A stretch of 23,300 nucleotides of DNA from a virus, in IMG/VR virus record IMGVR_UViG_3300031977_002338, positions 1 through 23,300 of that record, one strand, 5' to 3'. Every line of letters starts with the position of its first letter. Position 1 is the stretch's first letter. Below the pieces are notes generated by a model, which was not told where the DNA came from, made no database searches, and saw only the letters and a list, made by a program, of their open reading frames with translations. The translations under genes and the position numbers were made by a program. Shown piece by piece: positions 12,359 through 23,300 of the stretch.

Positions 12359-13303
12359 TTATTCTCTGTAAAAACCATCTTTAATGTTTTGAGGGATATC
12401 TCCCACTATTGTCCTTTCTCTTCCAAGTTTTATATCAACAGCATTTTGGCGTTTGACAATCTTTGGTTTTTCTTGGTTTTCGCCTTCTCCTATAAGATAG
12501 CCAAGAGTTTCAATGTTGATATTTGTTTCGTAGTTTCTTTGCTCCATACCAAGATTTGCTTGATTAGAGTTATTGGCAAAACCGCCATCAATAAATATCT
12601 CGTAATAATGGCCCTCTGCCTCGATACGCTTTGGAGTTCTTGAGTTGCCCGGAATCGTGATGAATGGACGAATAAGCTCGTTCATTTGTTGCTGATACTC
12701 GGTGCGAATAGAAATTTCATATGTTACCTTAACCCAGGTAGGAATTGGGATGGTTATCGTTTCATACACTGTTTTAGCGGTTGACATGTTTCTTTTATTC
12801 GTGTTGAGCATCTTGCTTGAAACGTTTTTATCTGGACCGTATTTTCTATTAGCCTGTGCATTTTGAAACTCTGCTGTTTTCTTTTGGTTTATTTGGCGAG
12901 CCACAGTGATTGTGCCGCCCTTTTCGTCGTTAACAGGATACAAGTTTGCAAATACAGTTCCTCTGTAGTTTTGTTCTTTAGTAACATTAGATCTATTGAC
13001 AGTTATTAAAGGAAGAATCAAAGTTTCTTCTTTATCTCTTAGATCTTTATTGTTTTTAATTTGAAAAGCGCGCTCTGCTGTAACCCATAAAACAGGAACC
13101 TTCTTGAAACCATCGTTAGTCGTGGTGAAAAGATTAAGTTCTTCATCAACAAATCGAAGCATTGCTCTATCAATCGTCTCTAAAGACGAAGGCATAAACT
13201 CAATTTCTTGAAGTTTTGCCGCAACTTCCTTATCACCAACATAATCGAATCGTTGGGAGCGTTTATCCTTTATTTGTCTTTCTGTTCTTTTACTACGCGA
13301 CAT
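12359..13303 (-). CDS. gp15: Tail terminator / sheath stabiliser (gp15-like)
   Basis: The 314-residue product shares the layout of T4 gp15 (272 residues). Near residues 45-85 there is a Met/Leu-rich helix, then KKVPVLWVTAERAFQIK and ETLILPLITVNRS. The later block is PIPTWVKVTYEISIRTEYQQ followed by MNELIRPFITIPGN, matching gp15's 'YELSIFTRYEDDMFQIVEQILPYF' region. A final strand set (NINIETLGYLIGEG) precedes a basic tail. The protein would cap the sheath and tube and join tail to head. The start at 13303 lies four bases after the neck gene's stop, so the two are coupled; the upstream ribosome site is weak (GTGGGA). The sheath gene follows, as expected. Confidence 0.72.
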   Translation of the reverse strand: MSRSKRTERQIKDKRSQRFDYVGDKEVAAKLQEIEFMPSSLETIDRAMLRFVDEELNLFTTTNDGFKKVPVLWVTAERAFQIKNNKDLRDKEETLILPLITVNRSNVTKEQNYRGTVFANLYPVNDEKGGTITVARQINQKKTAEFQNAQANRKYGPDKNVSSKMLNTNKRNMSTAKTVYETITIPIPTWVKVTYEISIRTEYQQQMNELIRPFITIPGNSRTPKRIEAEGHYYEIFIDGGFANNSNQANLGMEQRNYETNINIETLGYLIGEGENQEKPKIVKRQNAVDIKLGRERTIVGDIPQNIKDGFYRE

Positions 13304-14669: not shown

Positions 14670-16418
14670 CTATACGAGTCCTCTGCAGACAACCAAGCCG
14701 TACATGTCCGGACGGACCATCTTCTTGGCGTAACGGGTCATGACACCCTTACGAGGTACGAAGTCCTCTACACCGAAGATTGTATGTGTGGTCTGTAGTG
14801 GTACGTATGGTGCGTACACGTAGCCGCTCTCAAGGAAGCTGGAGCCACGTCGACCAACGAGGATCAACTGACGTGGGAAGTATGGGTCAACCATAACATC
14901 AAACTTCTTGGAGAGGGAACCAACGCGAACAGCGCCGATATCACCGCGATCAGCATCGGCTGTAACGTTTGCACGGAAGCCAGCTGTGAACTCAAGGATG
15001 TTGGCAACTTCTGGTCCGCAGACGACGAAGTTGGCAGCACCGCGAAGAGTCTTGCGGTGGATCTGAGCGGAGACGTCGTTGATTGTCTCAACGAGTGTCT
15101 CGTACCACTCGGATACGTTACCAGTGAAGTCAGCTACACCGGAAGCCAAAACAGCACCTGTCTCTCGGTTTAGGAACTCACCTGGGTTACGGGACCAGTA
15201 ACGTGTACCAGCCTCTGCACCACGTACAAGATCCTCAAGGATCTCGCGATCGATCTCTAGAGCGATCTGCTCGGAGAGGATCTGTGTAAGCTCAACCTCG
15301 GCGTCAAGGTTGTGGTAAGCGTTGAGGTCTTGACCCAACTCTGGTGTCCACTTAGCCTTGAGCTTCTTGGTTACAGCTGTGACTGCTACGGAATCGACAC
15401 GGATGTCGATCTCGGGGATGTCTTCACTTCCCTCAAGACCCCAATCGGCAGCGCCGACGAGGGAGCCAAGGGCACCACCAGCGTTGAAGTTGTCTTCCAT
15501 AGCGAATGTGATAGCAACACCACCACCAGAACCACTTGCGAGTGAAGCGGAAAGGGCGCCGGCTGTTGCAGCTGCATTGTAAGAAACGAGTGTTAGCAAG
15601 ATTGTATCACCATCATCAGCAACGATGTCATCAAAACGAGTTAGACGACGAACCAAGTTTTCATTAGCAGAGCCTGTGTAAGTAATAGTAATGAAGTCGT
15701 TAGGGTTCAATTCAGAACCAGCGGCTGTATCAACAGCAGCCTTGCTGATTGTACCAACAGCGAATGTAGAGCCAGATGGAAGATCTGGATCGAACTCTAG
15801 CAAACGGTCAACGTTGAAGCCAGCGGTTGGGAATGTACCGTTGCCAACAACAGAGCCTGTACCAACTACACCGAAAGCAACAATTGTAGGTGTTAGGCTT
15901 ACGGAACCTGTTGGAGAGGAGTAGCCGTTGTTGAGTGCGTAAGGACCACGCTCGGCGTTGTCTTCCGAGAGAAGAACACCACCTGTGATCTGGGAGCCAA
16001 CTCGGCCACCACCGTAGACTGATGTGTTTGTCTGGTAACCAAGACGTGGGTTATCAGCAACAGCACCATCACCAATCTCTGTGGAGAAGGTGAAGTCAAG
16101 GAAGAAAATGAGACCTGATGGAAGGCTCATTGGCTGAACGCTAACAAGATCGTTGGCGATCAAGGAACCGAATACTCGGCGTACTAGTGGGAATGCAACA
16201 GCTGCAAAACCCTCAACGTCTCCAGCAGCCATGCTGGAAGACTCACGGAGAAGCTCTTTTGCCTGATTCTCAAGCAAACGGGCCATACCGTTCTTCTGGT
16301 TATCGTCGGAAATGCCCTCAAGAAGACCAGTCTGCTCCCACTTGTTAATAAGTGCAGCACCCTCGGTCGAGAGGTCACGATTGACGATACCTTCTGTCAA
16401 TCTTTCTACAATAGACAT
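14670..16418 (-). CDS. gp23: Major capsid protein (T4 gp23 type)
   Basis: The 582-residue product follows T4 gp23 along its length: NKWEQTGLLEG and LLENQAKELLRE in the propeptide, FPLVRRVFGSLIANDLVSVQ then PMSLPSGLIFF, then LKAKWTPELGQDLNAYHNLD and LSEQIALEIDREIL, and finally YVYAPYVPLQTT with MTRYAKKMVRPDMYGLVV. T4 gp23 is 521 residues; the extra length lies mostly between residues 165 and 345 and is Gly/Ala/Thr-rich. T4's prohead protease cuts after (L/I)xE, and LRE ending at residue 59 is the best candidate site here, though LLE at residue 50 also fits. The ribosome site AGGAGGT is close to perfect. The scaffold gene lies just upstream. Confidence 0.95.
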   Translation of the reverse strand: MSIVERLTEGIVNRDLSTEGAALINKWEQTGLLEGISDDNQKNGMARLLENQAKELLRESSSMAAGDVEGFAAVAFPLVRRVFGSLIANDLVSVQPMSLPSGLIFFLDFTFSTEIGDGAVADNPRLGYQTNTSVYGGGRVGSQITGGVLLSEDNAERGPYALNNGYSSPTGSVSLTPTIVAFGVVGTGSVVGNGTFPTAGFNVDRLLEFDPDLPSGSTFAVGTISKAAVDTAAGSELNPNDFITITYTGSANENLVRRLTRFDDIVADDGDTILLTLVSYNAAATAGALSASLASGSGGGVAITFAMEDNFNAGGALGSLVGAADWGLEGSEDIPEIDIRVDSVAVTAVTKKLKAKWTPELGQDLNAYHNLDAEVELTQILSEQIALEIDREILEDLVRGAEAGTRYWSRNPGEFLNRETGAVLASGVADFTGNVSEWYETLVETINDVSAQIHRKTLRGAANFVVCGPEVANILEFTAGFRANVTADADRGDIGAVRVGSLSKKFDVMVDPYFPRQLILVGRRGSSFLESGYVYAPYVPLQTTHTIFGVEDFVPRKGVMTRYAKKMVRPDMYGLVVCRGLV

Positions 16419-18368: not shown

Positions 18369-19931
18369 TTATGTAGTAGAGACGATTCCCCAACCATATC
18401 CTCTCGCTGAAGAAGAAAAGGCCGTAATTGTTAACGCGCCGTAATTTGTTTGGATCTTTGCAGCAGTCCCACCATCAATCTTTTGTGATCCCGAAGGTTT
18501 GACAACAACGTTATTAGTTGATCCAGATCCGAACAAATCTTTAACTGTGTAAGTTAAGCCAATTTGATCATCTGTTGTAATCCCGGGCAATGTTCCAGTG
18601 ACTACAGATCCGGTACAATCTACGACAAATGTCTGAAAGCCTTCAATATTAAAATTTGAAGTTTGAACTTGTGATATAGCCTGATGATAGTCTGTACTGC
18701 GAAGTTTAAATTCACCCTCAAAAACATCAAGTAAATCTTTACCTCCGAATGTGTATCTTATGCCCTGACCAATATTGATAGAGCCGTTGGCTGAGGATGT
18801 TACCTCTATGCCCACAGATGCTGTGATTGTTGGGACAGACAATATATCAGAAGAGAATGTGAATGGAGAGTGGCTTGTGATTTGACCGTTAGTGGTTGAT
18901 ACCAACACTCTGTCTGCCGGTATGCTAGAAATATAAACGTCCCCTATATACAAGCCTGATCCCGAAATATTCACGGATGCTGAAATATCCCCCCCTACCG
19001 TAAGAGTATGGTCTGGGTTTGTGTTGTTAATACCCACTCTATTAGCCGAAGCTGAAATAAAAATTGTGTTGTCTTGTATTGTTTGATCTGTATCGTTCCC
19101 AATAAATAAATGACCTTTATCTAAGTTGGGAGTATCATTTGCTCTACCAGCACCACCAACTTTGATTTGCCCATTAGAACTAATACCATTGCGAACAACC
19201 TTGCCGATGTTTTGCACTAGGTTGCTAGAGCCTGTTGGTTTAACGTTAGTGAATGTACCCGCTGTTCCACCGGAGCCTGTGTTCACATAAAGAATATCAC
19301 CTTCCGAGAATGAATGTCCGGGGGATATGTTGTTTAGATTTAAGCCGTCAAGAGAACCAAAGGTTGCAACTTGAGTGTTAGTATTATTGCTGGCCGAAAA
19401 CGCACACAATCCAAAGGCGGGCATCTTAGCAGGGTCATCGCAAGCAGCAAGACCAATGGTCGGCGTTGTTCCCGATAATCCTTTGATATATACGACTTTG
19501 CCTTTTCCAATACCGCCAACTTCATCAACTTTGGCGACAAATAAGATAGCACCTTCCAAGTCGCCGTAGAATTCTTTGCCGTCTTCAAGGCGAACGTTGC
19601 CTGATATAAGAACATCACTTGTTGCTGGATCCCAAAGTAAATCACTAGAGCCACTTAGATCACCAGATACAGGAGAGTCAAATCTAAACTGTAAAGAATA
19701 TTGAGGACCATCAGCAACTTCAACCGCTGATGCTGTAACGTTTGTTAGGTTTGATCCATCACCATAAAAGGCAGATGCTGATATGTTTGCGGATGCTGAT
19801 AAGGATCCTGCACCGTCTGTTGTTAATAAAGCGGAGCCACTAAAGGATCCACTGCTATTGAATTGTATGTCTCCGTTAGAGCCTCCCGGTGATGTTGAGC
19901 CTCCACCCGGTCCATATACCCATCCTGACAT
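18369..19931 (-). CDS. Modular fibre protein, 520 aa
   Basis: The protein starts MSGWVYGPGGGSTSPGG and is built from recognisable fibre modules. Residues about 20-90 include NGDIQFNSSGSFSGSALL, then GDGSNLTNVTASA and QYSLQFRFDSP. Residues about 130-250 form a 'VVYIKG...PTIGLA...MPAFGLCAF...SEGDILYVN...IGKVVRNG' domain found in phage fibres. Next are GHLFIGNDTDQTIQD and VGINNTNPDHTLTVGGDISA. The last about 47 residues (KPSGSQKIDGG, YGALTITAF, YGWGIV) form a cap like those of the two neighbouring fibre genes. There is no signal peptide or enzyme motif. The start follows AGGAG; a terminator and CTATTTA lie upstream. It could be a head, collar or tail fibre; location next to head genes favours the first two. 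Confidence 0.78.
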   Translation of the reverse strand: MSGWVYGPGGGSTSPGGSNGDIQFNSSGSFSGSALLTTDGAGSLSASANISASAFYGDGSNLTNVTASAVEVADGPQYSLQFRFDSPVSGDLSGSSDLLWDPATSDVLISGNVRLEDGKEFYGDLEGAILFVAKVDEVGGIGKGKVVYIKGLSGTTPTIGLAACDDPAKMPAFGLCAFSASNNTNTQVATFGSLDGLNLNNISPGHSFSEGDILYVNTGSGGTAGTFTNVKPTGSSNLVQNIGKVVRNGISSNGQIKVGGAGRANDTPNLDKGHLFIGNDTDQTIQDNTIFISASANRVGINNTNPDHTLTVGGDISASVNISGSGLYIGDVYISSIPADRVLVSTTNGQITSHSPFTFSSDILSVPTITASVGIEVTSSANGSINIGQGIRYTFGGKDLLDVFEGEFKLRSTDYHQAISQVQTSNFNIEGFQTFVVDCTGSVVTGTLPGITTDDQIGLTYTVKDLFGSGSTNNVVVKPSGSQKIDGGTAAKIQTNYGALTITAFSSSARGYGWGIVSTT

Positions 19932-20037: not shown

Positions 20038-21732
20038 CTAGACGATTCTCCAGTTGTCTGCTACAACGTATACCAAAGATACAGCAGCGTATGGGGACTC
20101 AAGGTCAATGGTGGATTCACCATCGATTGTGTGAGAACCCTGGCAGCTGATTCTAAGGACGTAGTCGCCAGAAATGTCACCAGCCTTAACGTGGATAACG
20201 TCACCAACGGATGGCGATGCTGGAAGATCAACACCTACGTTTGCTGCAGAAATGGCAGCGAAGTAGTTGTAACCTTCCTGAAGTGTATCACCATCAGCCT
20301 TGGAGTGAACATCGTTACCAGTAACGGAAAGCTGACCGGATGTGGCTGTAAGACCAGCACCTGCCATTGCGGATACGATATCAGCAAGGCTTTCCTTCTT
20401 TGTGCTGTTGTCAGTAGCATCGACAATAGCAACAAAGTCGGCACTCATGTCAACGTCAGCAGCTGTCAACTCGTTGAGGTCAAGGCTAAGAACAGCAGAA
20501 GATGCTGCAAGACCGTCACCTGCGAAGAGTGTAGCGAGATCGTCAATTGTTTCCTTCTTCATGGAGTCAGAATCATCTGAATCGATGAATGCGAAGCTGT
20601 CGCCGGAAGCGATTGCGCCTGCGGAGAACTCTGCGAGGTCAACCTCTAGAGCGTGGGATGCAAGAGCAATACCGTTACCAGCTACACTGGACTTCAACTG
20701 AATCTCATCAGACGCAATTGCGAAGGATGTGGAGTTGACCTGTACTTCTAGAACACCAGAAGAAGCTGCGAGAGCGTCACCAGCGATTGCAGTGGCGTAG
20801 TCAGCCATTGCGTCACGCTTCATTAGACCATCGCTGTCAAGGAAGTAGAAGCTATCTGCAGCTACGTCAAGTGCTGCATCAGCAACGCCTTCAAGCTCAA
20901 CTGTACCGCCAGCGTAAAGGTTACCAGAACCAGAGATAGCGCCAACTACTGCGAGCTTAGAACCATCAAAGGTCAACTTTGAATCGTCTTCAAGCTCACC
21001 ACCTGTACCGGCGAGAACGATACGACCAGAGGTCAAGTCCTCAACGATAGCAGTGTTGAATGTTGCACCACCGTCAACTTCAAGGGAGCTATCAAAGACA
21101 GCAGCCTCGTCAACAGAAAGTGTACCACGGATGTCTGTTGCGACACCTGTAGCAGCCAAGGATGTTGCACCAGCAACGTCAAGGGCACCGTTAAGATCAG
21201 CTGCACCAGCAACTGTGATACCAGCCTGCAAGTTCATTGCACCCTGGAAGTCAGATGTGCTGTTGAAGTCAGCAGCGCCATCAACCTGCATTGTGCTGTC
21301 GAATACAGCAGCTTCGTCTACGGAAAGTGTACCACGAATGTCTGTTGCAACACCAGAAGCAGCCAAGGATGCTGCACCAGCAACATCGAGAGCGCCATTG
21401 AGGTCAGCTGCACCAGCAACTGTTAGAGCGTCCTGCAAGTTTACAGCACCCTGGAAATCAGCTGTGCTGTTTGCGTCGAGTGCGCCACCAACTGTCATAA
21501 TGCCATCGATGCTGAAGTTACGAGCACCAGACATGTCCTTGTTGGAATCTAGAACCATAGCCTTGGATGCGGCTGCGGTACCATCTGTGATGCCATCAAG
21601 CTTTTCGAGATCAGTTTCGCTCATGTCAGCGGAACCGATAACGAGGGAGAAACCGGATTCGATTTCTACGTTACCCTCTTGGAGAAGGGCACCTGAGAGG
21701 ATTGCATCTCCTCTTTGGAATTTGTAAGCCAT
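20038..21732 (-). CDS. Repeat-rich fibre/decoration protein, 564 aa
   Basis: The start MAYKFQRGDAILSGALLQEG is followed by LEKLDGITDGTAAASKAMVL and DSNKDMSGARNFSIDG, a motif widespread in phage structural proteins. Residues 91-228 are two near-identical 69-residue units (DFQGA, TVAGAADLNGALDVAGA, DIRGTLSVDEAAVFDS). Three looser units (FLDSDGLMKRDAMADYA, FIDSDDSDSMKKETIDDLA, IVDATDNSTKKESLADIV, each followed by AGD/AG-LAASS-VL) lie near residues 297-330, 382-416 and 434-470. The end has GSHTIDGESTIDLESPYAAV and DNWRIV, the same cap type as the two adjacent fibres. The ribosome site GGAGGA is strong and codons favour C- or G-ending forms as in the capsid gene, so the product is probably abundant. 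It is likely a trimeric beta-rich fibre; target unknown. Confidence 0.8.
   Translation of the reverse strand: MAYKFQRGDAILSGALLQEGNVEIESGFSLVIGSADMSETDLEKLDGITDGTAAASKAMVLDSNKDMSGARNFSIDGIMTVGGALDANSTADFQGAVNLQDALTVAGAADLNGALDVAGAASLAASGVATDIRGTLSVDEAAVFDSTMQVDGAADFNSTSDFQGAMNLQAGITVAGAADLNGALDVAGATSLAATGVATDIRGTLSVDEAAVFDSSLEVDGGATFNTAIVEDLTSGRIVLAGTGGELEDDSKLTFDGSKLAVVGAISGSGNLYAGGTVELEGVADAALDVAADSFYFLDSDGLMKRDAMADYATAIAGDALAASSGVLEVQVNSTSFAIASDEIQLKSSVAGNGIALASHALEVDLAEFSAGAIASGDSFAFIDSDDSDSMKKETIDDLATLFAGDGLAASSAVLSLDLNELTAADVDMSADFVAIVDATDNSTKKESLADIVSAMAGAGLTATSGQLSVTGNDVHSKADGDTLQEGYNYFAAISAANVGVDLPASPSVGDVIHVKAGDISGDYVLRISCQGSHTIDGESTIDLESPYAAVSLVYVVADNWRIV
20323..20844 (-). repeat. 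Three diverged protein-coding repeats in the 564-aa fibre gene
   Basis: Three units share an 'F-iDsD-kket-aDlat-AGdgLaAsS-vL' pattern at residues about 297-330, 382-416 and 434-470. Spacing is uneven (about 85 and 54 residues), so they are old and diverged. Units of this type are common in fibre proteins of T4-like phages. Confidence 0.7.
21049..21462 (-). repeat. Tandem 207-bp duplication in the 564-aa fibre gene
   Basis: Two adjacent in-frame copies, 21462-21256 and 21255-21049, encode residues 91-159 and 160-228. The protein copies differ at only about a dozen positions; long stretches such as TVAGAADLNGALDVAGA are identical. The DNA has more differences, mostly at third positions, so the duplication is not brand new but is held under protein-level constraint. 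Confidence 0.9.
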
Positions 21733-21882: not shown

Positions 21883-23300
21883 TTAGTAGATGAACCAATC
21901 GGATCCATCGGTGTATAAAAAGACTGATCCGTAAGGTGATTCAACATAGATGGCTGGTGCTCCGTCAATCGTTTGTGATCCCGAGGGGTTAAGGATTACA
22001 GAGTTAGCCGACGAAGCTTGCCCGGACTCGTCTTTTACTATTAAAGTTTGTCCCGCAGAAAAATCTGTGGCATTAAATAAAATACTTGTCGGTACTGACG
22101 ACACACCAATAATATAATTCTCTGACGATGCTGTATGACTTGATGAAACTGATACCCTGCTGTGTACGAGTCCGCCATTAACTGTTAGGCTATTGTCATT
22201 AACGCTATAAGATACTTTTGTTGTCCCGCTAATTTCGTTTGTTATTGGGTTATCAACTCTAAATTGTAAAGATCCAATTGGTCCGTCGCCGGCCATAATT
22301 GCTGATGCTGTAACGTTTGTAAGATATCTTCCGTCGCCATAATAAAAAGATGCTGATACATGTGTGGAAGCAGACACCGTTGTAAATATACCCATGCTCG
22401 CAGATAATAAAGAGGATCCGTCTGCTGATACCTCACCAAGCGTAGCGATAACTTCATTGCTCTGGGGCCCATTAACAATTTGAATTGATCCGGAAATTTT
22501 AAGAGGCGAGCCACCAACTACGACACCCTTTACGGTCAAGTCTCCGGCAATAAAAACATCCGAAGATGCCGACACGTTTCCAATAACTGTTAATGAGTGT
22601 GAGGGCGCATCTGTATTAATTCCCAAACGCCCAGAAGAGGGCAAGAAAGTTAAATTAGCAGAGCCCGTAAATACGCCGGCGCCTTGCTGGAACTGTATAG
22701 AGCCAGTTGGCCCAACAGCATTTGCGCCAGCAGCACTAATAGTAAGTGTATTGTTCGGACCATTGTCTGTTAGGGTGATACCCGTACCGGCTGACAATCT
22801 TCTCTCGTTTGGTAATCTAACTTCTGAATTAACTGTTATATAAGTTGCGTTAAGTGGAGGATAAGGCGCCGGTCTTGGTGCTGGTTGAGAAACATCTGTT
22901 TCTTCTTGTTGTTGTAAAGTTGGACGATCAATGCCTGGGATTACTCTGAATGCGCCTTCTCGTGCTTTCACGCATTCTGCACTGATTTGGAATTTATGTT
23001 CTACCTGCCCAAAGTAATAGCGAGTGTCATTATAAGTCTTTACAATCTCATAGAATACATCGCCGTACTGAACATAATCACCAACACGAACATAAAGATT
23101 TTGATCTTCTACAAGTCTACGACGATGAAAGTTAACAGTTAGTTTGGTTTGGTATTCATAACCATACTTTGTGTTGGTCTGGTCATTTTGGACCTCAACG
23201 TATGCGAATACACGAACAGGCGGCAAAGATACTTTTTCTTTTGCCTCGCCGTAAATATCGTTAAAGTTTGATTCTTCAATGCTTATGGGATAATAAGCAA
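21883..23300 (-). CDS. Neck-like (possibly gp14-type) protein fused to fibre modules, 5' end cut by right edge
   Basis: The frame is open through the right edge, giving at least 471 residues; an in-frame TTG at 23226 is internal, not a start. Visible residues 16-120 contain IYGEAKEKVSLPPVRVFAYV, TKYGYEYQTKLTVNFHRRRL, RVGDYVQYGDVFYEIVKTYN and RYYFGQVEHKFQI. The order 'YGE-K, FyG, GD-YEI, fGQ' resembles T4 gp14 and similar neck proteins; this is a tentative match. After a Pro-rich linker (QPAPRPAPYPPLNATYI) the rest is fibre: GSIQFQQGAGVFTGSANL, GINTDAPSHSLTVIGNVSAS, GDGRYLTNVTASA and a C-terminal cap (NPSGSQTIDGA, SPYGSVFLY, SDWFIY). It may be a collar protein carrying its own whisker-like fibre. 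Confidence 0.72.
   Translation of the reverse strand, partial: AYYPISIEESNFNDIYGEAKEKVSLPPVRVFAYVEVQNDQTNTKYGYEYQTKLTVNFHRRRLVEDQNLYVRVGDYVQYGDVFYEIVKTYNDTRYYFGQVEHKFQISAECVKAREGAFRVIPGIDRPTLQQQEETDVSQPAPRPAPYPPLNATYITVNSEVRLPNERRLSAGTGITLTDNGPNNTLTISAAGANAVGPTGSIQFQQGAGVFTGSANLTFLPSSGRLGINTDAPSHSLTVIGNVSASSDVFIAGDLTVKGVVVGGSPLKISGSIQIVNGPQSNEVIATLGEVSADGSSLLSASMGIFTTVSASTHVSASFYYGDGRYLTNVTASAIMAGDGPIGSLQFRVDNPITNEISGTTKVSYSVNDNSLTVNGGLVHSRVSVSSSHTASSENYIIGVSSVPTSILFNATDFSAGQTLIVKDESGQASSANSVILNPSGSQTIDGAPAIYVESPYGSVFLYTDGSDWFIY

What the first reader, a model, noticed from the sequence alone, without database searches (positions are those of the whole stretch)
21883..23300. Neck-like protein fused in one chain to a fibre ending in a cap
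Seen: one open frame links a compact N-terminal region with a neck-like pattern, a Pro-rich linker, and some 340 residues of fibre modules. In T4 the collar whiskers are a separate protein (fibritin) attached near gp13/gp14. A fusion would give each neck subunit its own whisker or collar fibre, fixed in number by neck symmetry. The gp14 resemblance is tentative.
Basis: partly seen in the sequence, partly recalled or inferred. Interest (0 to 1): 0.7.

Follow-up and report, generated by a model that had tools for sequence, protein, structure and literature searches.

The report
Neck ring protein carrying a fibre
A virus of bacteria known only from environmental DNA appears to have joined a fibre onto one of the ring proteins that seal its head to its tail, and a near-identical virus carries a second, fibre-free copy of that ring protein right beside it, suggesting a neck ring built from bare and fibre-bearing parts.

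Summary
The open frame is real (minus strand, 21883-23298, cut at its 5' end). A contig 99.97% identical over 10,350 bp (L004) supplies the whole 515-aa protein. Its first ~164 residues are a gp14-like head-closure (stopper) protein. No HMM library names it, but four results agree: profile alignment to T4 gp14 (P 1.1e-5; seven T4 decoys at 0.0069 or worse), the T4 gp14 chain as top Foldseek hit (E 4.4e-5), bare 158-178-aa relatives sitting in the T4 slot gp13-gp14-gp15, and that slot being closed (4-15 bp) in 14 of 14 contigs where the gene has moved. A 30-37-residue Pro-rich linker leads to a variable fibre, here ending in a T4 gp9/gp10-like domain.

New: L004 carries a bare 170-aa gp14 twin 15 bp upstream. 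Fifteen distinct contigs have such a tandem; 27 have only the fused gene. Best reading: a neck-anchored fibre, probably on a mixed gp14 ring. In the necks I read about, fibres are separate proteins held by the adaptor or a special ring. Host, virion location, stoichiometry and fibre function are untested.

The parts
22939..23298 (-). gp14-like head-closure (stopper) domain; residues 45-164 of the full protein, first 44 residues lie outside the window (present in L004:4764-4895)
22840..22938 (-). Pro-rich linker (about 33 residues)
22222..22839 (-). variable beta-type fibre modules, one GDGxxLTNV-type motif
21886..22221 (-). C-terminal cap domain, fold of T4 gp9 (65-163), T4 baseplate chain 5iv5_AC (gp10, recalled), CBA120 TSP4 (74-175)
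21883..23298 (-). whole fused gene (5' end outside the window), with stop codon
13308..14576 (-). gp13-like adaptor, presumed ring partner
   Evidence: hhalign 95%, phrog_211
12359..13303 (-). weakly gp15-like terminator; lies 4 bp after the gp13-like gene, so the usual gp14 slot is empty
20038..21732 (-). neighbouring 564-aa fibre protein with the same type of cap
18369..19931 (-). neighbouring 520-aa fibre protein with the same type of cap and the GDGSNLTNV motif
14670..16418 (-). major capsid protein, gp23 family (context)

Best explanation
The gene encodes a gp14-type head-closure subunit of the neck whose C terminus has been extended by a flexible Pro-rich linker and a fibre. The N-terminal domain takes its place in the six-fold stopper ring between the gp13-like adaptor and the gp15-like terminator, so the fibre is anchored to the neck of the virion. 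In this virus it works beside a bare gp14 twin encoded just upstream (seen in L004), so the ring is probably mixed and the number of fibre chains is set by how many extended subunits enter it. Extended chains then trimerise through the fibre; the ~33-residue linker gives slack to bring non-adjacent C termini together. The gp9/gp10-like tip most likely docks another fibre or a tail fibre, or binds the host. SHOWN here: gp14 homology, fusion, empty canonical slot, tandem twin, purifying selection on both copies, fast fibre turnover. INFERRED: presence in the virion, ring position, six subunits (from T4), mixed ring (about 0.45), trimer, tip function.
For: Fold: top Foldseek hit T4 gp14 chain 9mkb_0, E 4.4e-5. 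Profile: 118 columns, P 1.1e-5 against decoys at 0.0069 or worse. Synteny: 86 of 139 distinct contigs have the bare domain next to gp13- and/or gp15-like genes; gp13-gp15 gap 4-15 bp in 14 of 14 moved contigs against a median of 488 bp in 76 others. In 25 of 27 fused-only contigs the whole record was searched and each held one gp14 copy, so there the fused protein is the only known candidate for head closure. Tandem twin in 15 distinct contigs; dN/dS medians 0.039 (twins) and 0.026 (fused N domains), from 13 and 6 usable pairs of 55. Fibre parts diverge fast behind a constant N domain in 12 of 13 chosen pairs. T4 gp14 C terminus contacts gp15 and 812 stopper termini contact outer decoration proteins, so an outward C-terminal extension is plausible (PMC12270204, PMC12886913, passages).
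Against: Pfam and PHROGs do not recognise the domain as gp14, and a PDB sequence-profile search missed it. The model is only moderate (pLDDT 69). No virion data, host or cultured member of the fused group. In tandem genomes the bare copy could do the neck job alone. Records are linear fragments of unknown completeness. The T4 C-terminal arm that contacts gp15 is absent from the bare relatives, so the exit path is inferred.
Confidence: 0.68

Rival explanations
1. After duplication the bare twin kept the neck job and the fused paralogue was re-used elsewhere (baseplate or tail), its gp14 domain serving only as a docking platform for a fibre.
For: A bare twin exists in L004 and 14 other distinct contigs; cap fold and hits resemble baseplate and tail-fibre proteins.
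Against: Fused-only contigs show one gp14 copy in 25 of 25 whole records searched, and their gp13-gp15 slot is closed. The fused N domain stays as conserved as the twin. A cap at the far end says little about where the near end sits.
Confidence: 0.17
2. The fibre is cut off or lost after assembly (for example by the prohead protease, Peptidase_S77, found in L004) or serves only in assembly, so the mature neck carries no fibre.
For: A Peptidase_S77 prohead protease gene lies upstream in L004; bare and fused forms coexist, so a bare ring is viable.
Against: By eye the linker of L004 holds no obvious (L/I)-x-E site of the T4 type (site recalled, not tested systematically). The cap is a folded domain conserved in type in 35 of 40 complete fused proteins, and fibre swapping is hard to explain for a discarded part.
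Confidence: 0.1
3. The N domain is not gp14 but another phage beta-barrel of the tube, terminator or baseplate type, and the gp14 match is a common-fold match.
For: Hcp, lambda tail-tip and baseplate chains appear lower in the same VIA list; first hhalign gave only 14.7%.
Against: T4 gp14 ranks first and neck proteins fill the top ranks; T4 decoys score far worse; the bare form lies exactly between gp13 and gp15; sheath, hub and gp13-like proteins are separately encoded.
Confidence: 0.05

Closest known systems
T4 gp14 (head closure Hc2; PF11649, phrog_679; PDB 9mkb, 9lu4-9lu7)
   Same: fold, profile match over 118 columns, gene order of the bare relatives between gp13 and gp15
   Different: no fibre in T4; its C-terminal arm of about 80 residues contacts gp15 and is missing in the bare relatives; here the C terminus carries linker and fibre
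T4 fibritin (wac) whiskers
   Same: a fibre attached at the neck
   Different: separate protein bound to gp13 domain III; no Fibritin_C domain in any of 10 records searched, T4 as positive control
A-1(L) neck fibres (gp82-gp81-gp80 on the gp5 pentadecamer)
   Same: trimeric fibres at the neck, symmetry mismatch
   Different: separate proteins on a 15-mer ring, five fibres (PMC10966104, passages); here in one chain with the stopper subunit
Sf14 whiskers (gp30/gp31 on adapter gp37)
   Same: neck appendages, some touching the sheath
   Different: separate proteins attached to the adapter (PMC11821841, passages)
Cyanophage gp14 of ~490 aa (S-BM1, ACG-2014f) and Tenacibaculum PTm1 neck protein (619 aa)
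   Same: gp14 domain with a long C-terminal extension
   Different: extensions are other modules (GxGYxxPP-type repeats, weak lectin-like hit), not a long capped fibre behind a Pro-rich linker; no bare twin was looked for there
T4 gp9 / gp10, CBA120 TSP4, Solidus tailspike C terminus
   Same: fold of the C-terminal cap (Z 9.9-11.5)
   Different: in gp9, gp10 and TSP4 an inner domain of a baseplate or tailspike protein; here a C-terminal tip, as in the Solidus tailspike and the Pa223 capsid spike

Membership tests
Head-closure / stopper proteins of the gp14 type (structural class) | fold of the gp14/stopper barrel | tested here: met
   Foldseek rank 1 T4 gp14, E 4.4e-5; VIA Z 8.9, 129 residues, rmsd 7.3 A; model pLDDT 69
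Head-closure / stopper proteins of the gp14 type (structural class) | sequence relation to gp14 | tested here: met
   hhalign P 1.1e-5, 118 columns; seven T4 decoys at 0.0069 or worse; weak with a shallower profile
Head-closure / stopper proteins of the gp14 type (structural class) | gene between adaptor gp13 and terminator gp15 | tested here: met
   met by the bare relatives (86 of 139 distinct contigs) and Mel-JY01; the window's own gene has moved away and left the slot empty
Head-closure / stopper proteins of the gp14 type (structural class) | hexameric ring under the adaptor, closing the channel | not testable with these tools
   only single chains could be modelled
Pfam PF11649 / PHROG 679, 460 (curated gp14 families) | HMM match at the curated or usual threshold | tested here: not met
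   no match for the fused protein, 56 N domains or the twin; so not filed under these curated families
Fibritin (wac) | Fibritin_C foldon domain | tested here: not met
   0 of 10 records incl. the window; T4 control rings at E 2.3e-34
gp9/gp10/TSP4-type domain (cap) | domain fold | tested here: met
   Z 10.5 gp9, 9.9 5iv5_AC, 11.5 TSP4; model pLDDT 93
gp9/gp10/TSP4-type domain (cap) | binds another fibre or spike | not testable with these tools
   function inferred from the fold and from recalled work on gp9, gp10 and TSP4
gp9/gp10/TSP4-type domain (cap) | trimer | not testable with these tools
   no multimer prediction available

The most novel reading that the evidence does not exclude
The phage builds a heteromeric stopper ring from two gp14 paralogues, one bare and one carrying a fibre, so that the 6-fold ring can hold trimeric fibres in a set number (for instance three extended and three bare subunits giving one fibre). 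The tree favours this tandem arrangement having arisen twice (main group and L050/L054), while relatives with only the fused gene would carry fibre on all six. A head-sealing ring would thus double as a fibre platform that swaps fibres quickly while the seal stays constant.
Probability: 0.35. Interest if true: 0.78.

Novelty: new variant of a known kind. Interest (0 to 1): 0.62.

Why it matters
Neck fibres are known, but in the structures whose passages I read they are separate proteins held by the adaptor or a special ring. Here the protein that seals the packaged head appears to carry the fibre itself, so fibre attachment cannot fail independently of head closure, and the fibre can be swapped by recombination at one linker. 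The three states found in close relatives (bare, fused, tandem bare plus fused) are a natural series for asking how a six-fold ring carries three-fold fibres and whether a phage can tune fibre number by paralogue ratio. The finding also names gp14 in a large uncultured T4-like group and in two cultured phages where the gene is unnamed or overlooked (Mel-JY01, immuto).

Tried and rejected
Family scans of the N domain (Pfam, PHROGs) gave no head-closure name, and a PDB sequence-profile search gave only chance hits. The first hhalign against gp14 was weak (14.7%); it became clear only with a deeper profile. The window protein against the phage collection by tblastn hit 4 of 50,697 records, fibre tip only.

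Considered and set aside: fibritin (no Fibritin_C; alone was uninformative because its controls did not ring, one search gave the T4 control); chimeric assembly (42 distinct contigs show the fused or tandem form); a firm statement on origins. The tree is not decisive there: holding all 36 fused rows together gives p-AU 0.087, all 13 twins 0.072, all 56 moved rows 0.42, so a double origin of the tandem is favoured by the free tree, not shown. The bootstrap had not settled.

Six positions where twins and fused copies share no residue were looked at for signs of ring alternation; nothing decisive. The genome scan found 2 loci, both in MAGs and both bare; the host stays unknown. Cap profile against PDB sequences gave chance hits only.

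Rows dropped before counts: L077 (partial) and ten loci that repeat contigs already held (L084-L088, L090, L091, L094, L095, L101), leaving 139 of 150 loci. L050's downstream copy is cut by the contig end and only presumed fused; L014 is fused but its end is cut. Linker lengths were measured in 40 of 42 fused or tandem contigs. The tree used 129 different rows of 153. The cap alignment A5 used 28 of 30 distinct caps of that type plus two window fibres; 5 of 40 complete fused proteins end differently (L015, L016, L017, L028, L045) and were left out. The loci come from capped searches for near relatives, so their proportions are not natural frequencies; several contigs may be the same virus from different samples.

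Papers: PMC12270204, PMC10966104, PMC7029224, PMC11821841, PMC10491603 and PMC12886913 were seen as passages found by terms; all others only as search listings. Statements that stopper-fibre fusions were not met in print rest on searches of an open-access library; subscription papers are mostly missing.

Full report
OBSERVATION. The window is a whole 23.3-kb virus record. The frame at 21883-23298 is on the minus strand, 471 codons, open at its 5' end because the contig stops there. L004, from another contig record, matches the window at 99.97% over 10,350 bp and gives the full gene: start ATG at L004:4764, 515 aa. The anatomy is a ~164-residue N domain, a ~33-residue Pro-rich linker, ~206 residues of beta-type fibre modules and a 112-residue C-terminal domain.

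WHAT THE N DOMAIN IS. Standard libraries do not name it, and a PDB sequence-profile search found nothing. An alignment of 56 different N domains from related virus contigs gave an AlphaFold2 model of moderate quality (pLDDT 69, pTM 0.57). Its best Foldseek match among solved structures is chain 9mkb_0 (E 4.4e-5), named neck protein gp14 of T4; ranks 2-6 are neck, stopper or connector entries of Pam3, NF5, T1, E217 and Chi. VIA-align gives Z 9.6 (phage 812 neck), 9.2 (Chi), 9.1 (Pam3) and 8.9 (T4 gp14). A first profile comparison was weak (P 0.0018). With all relatives plus two cultured phages the match to gp14 covers 118 columns with P 1.1e-5, against 0.0069 for the best of seven T4 decoys (gp53).

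GENE ORDER. laid out 150 loci. After removing one partial and ten repeated loci, 139 distinct contigs remain. In 86 the domain is a bare protein of 158-178 aa lying next to gp13- and/or gp15-like genes, the T4 order. In Microcystis phage Mel-JY01 an unnamed 174-aa protein in that slot scores 65.9 bits with the family profile. In Flavobacterium phage immuto the homologous frame is present but covered by three 'hypothetical' features. In the window lineage the gene has moved upstream of fibre, scaffold-like and capsid genes; in the 14 moved contigs that hold both gp13- and gp15-like genes these are 4-15 bp apart, while in the 76 other contigs measured the median gap is 488 bp. The window's own gap is 4 bp. 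The 422-aa neighbour is gp13-like (hhalign 95%; phrog_211); the 314-aa one is only weakly gp15-like (P 0.005).

FUSED, BARE AND TANDEM FORMS. Of the 139 contigs, 7 carry a moved bare gene, 27 a fused gene only, 15 a tandem of bare then fused gene (one of these, L050, is cut before its fibre), and 4 a different order, gp13-gp15-gp14, with a ~110-residue C tail. L004, hence almost certainly the window virus, is a tandem: bare twin at L004:4236-4748 (170 aa, 80% identical) ending 15 bp before the fused gene. In 25 of the 27 fused-only contigs the whole record was searched and held one copy each, the longest being 194, 117 and 112 kb; the two not searched whole are L047 and L092. Five tandem records searched whole held two copies each. 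All are linear records of unknown completeness.

HISTORY. In a tree of 129 different N domains eleven twins form one group (100/88) near moved bare genes, and most fused copies lie in another (99/88), so the window's twin and fused gene look like old paralogues inherited together. Pairwise identities of twins and of fused N domains correlate (r 0.69, 55 pairs). The L050/L054 twins fall inside the fused group (99/95), which suggests a second origin of the tandem, and L041/L048/L092 stand apart; yet holding all twins together, or all fused rows together, is not rejected (p-AU 0.072 and 0.087). One relocation of the gene is compatible with the data (p-AU 0.42). Both copies are under strong purifying selection: median dN/dS 0.039 for twins and 0.026 for fused N domains, from the 13 and 6 of 55 pairs that are not saturated.

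LINKER, FIBRE, CAP. The linker is 30-37 residues in the 40 fused proteins measured, 24% Pro at the median, with a P-x-P-R-x-x-P-Y-P-P type motif in 28 of 40 complete ones. Behind it the fibre changes fast: in 12 of 13 pairs that I chose the N domains are 85-99% identical while the rest is 13-75% identical; the thirteenth pair (L005/L007) is 95% and 97%. Of 40 complete fused proteins 35 end in the same type of cap. Its model is confident (pLDDT 93.4) and matches Klebsiella KP1 baseplate chain LS (Z 11.7), CBA120 TSP4 (11.5), the C terminus of the Solidus tailspike (11.3), T4 gp9 (10.5), T4 baseplate chain 5iv5_AC, which I take to be gp10 (9.9), and the Pa223 capsid spike (9.9). Both neighbouring fibre proteins of the window carry the cap too. 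I recall that gp9, gp10 and the TSP4 domains hold other fibres or spikes, which is why docking is my first guess for the tip, with host binding as the alternative.

MECHANISM. In T4, gp14 is a hexamer under a gp13 dodecamer; its C-terminal residues 178-256 contact gp15, and fibritin binds gp13 domain III (PMC12270204, passages). In phage 812 the stopper's termini meet outer decoration proteins (PMC12886913, passages). A C-terminal extension of gp14 can therefore plausibly leave the ring outward near the gp14-gp15 level. Six extended chains could form two trimers; a mixed ring of three bare and three extended subunits would give one. The linker, at most about 100 A if fully stretched (my estimate), could bridge non-adjacent subunits. 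None of this stoichiometry has been measured.

KNOWN OR NEW. Neck fibres or whiskers of T4, A-1(L) and Sf14 are separate proteins on the adaptor or a special ring; Milano has a collar without fibres. Extended gp14s exist elsewhere: 487- and 492-aa cyanophage gp14s whose extra parts resemble baseplate and fibre modules and a 619-aa Tenacibaculum neck protein with a weak lectin-like hit below the Pfam cut-off. Thus 'gp14 with extra C-terminal domains' is not unique; a gp14 fused to a long, exchangeable, capped fibre, and the tandem with a bare twin, I did not meet in the papers searched. I rate it a new variant of a known kind.

Noticed in passing
L160:21355-21864 (NC_055915.1 133256-133765): Flavobacterium phage immuto has a gp14-like open frame that the record does not annotate; three other 'hypothetical' features overlap it.
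   Followed up: partly
L004:3567-3788: A ribosomal protein S21 homologue (PF01165, E 5.9e-11) lies two genes upstream of the gp14 twin; Mel-JY01 has an annotated RpsU in its head region.
   Followed up: partly
L120, L121, L139, L142: A separate clade (100/100) has gene order gp13-gp15-gp14 and a ~110-residue C-terminal extension of gp14 of unknown type.
   Followed up: no
L028 fused gene; L038:9430-12801: Some fibres end in a different shared C-terminal module (ending near NK[ST]GKRFKLLMEEIE), so caps seem to be exchanged between fibre genes.
   Followed up: no
L079:5935-7398; L082:1998-3476: Cyanophage gp14s are about 490 aa, with a C-terminal half sharing modules with baseplate and tail-fibre PHROGs.
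   Followed up: partly
window 14670-16418: tblastn to other gp23 proteins covers only about 63% of the 582-aa capsid protein in two pieces, hinting at a large insertion.
   Followed up: no
L164, L165: Bare gp14 relatives occur in contigs binned as an Actinomycetes and a WOR-3 genome; phage contigs or prophages, not checked.
   Followed up: no
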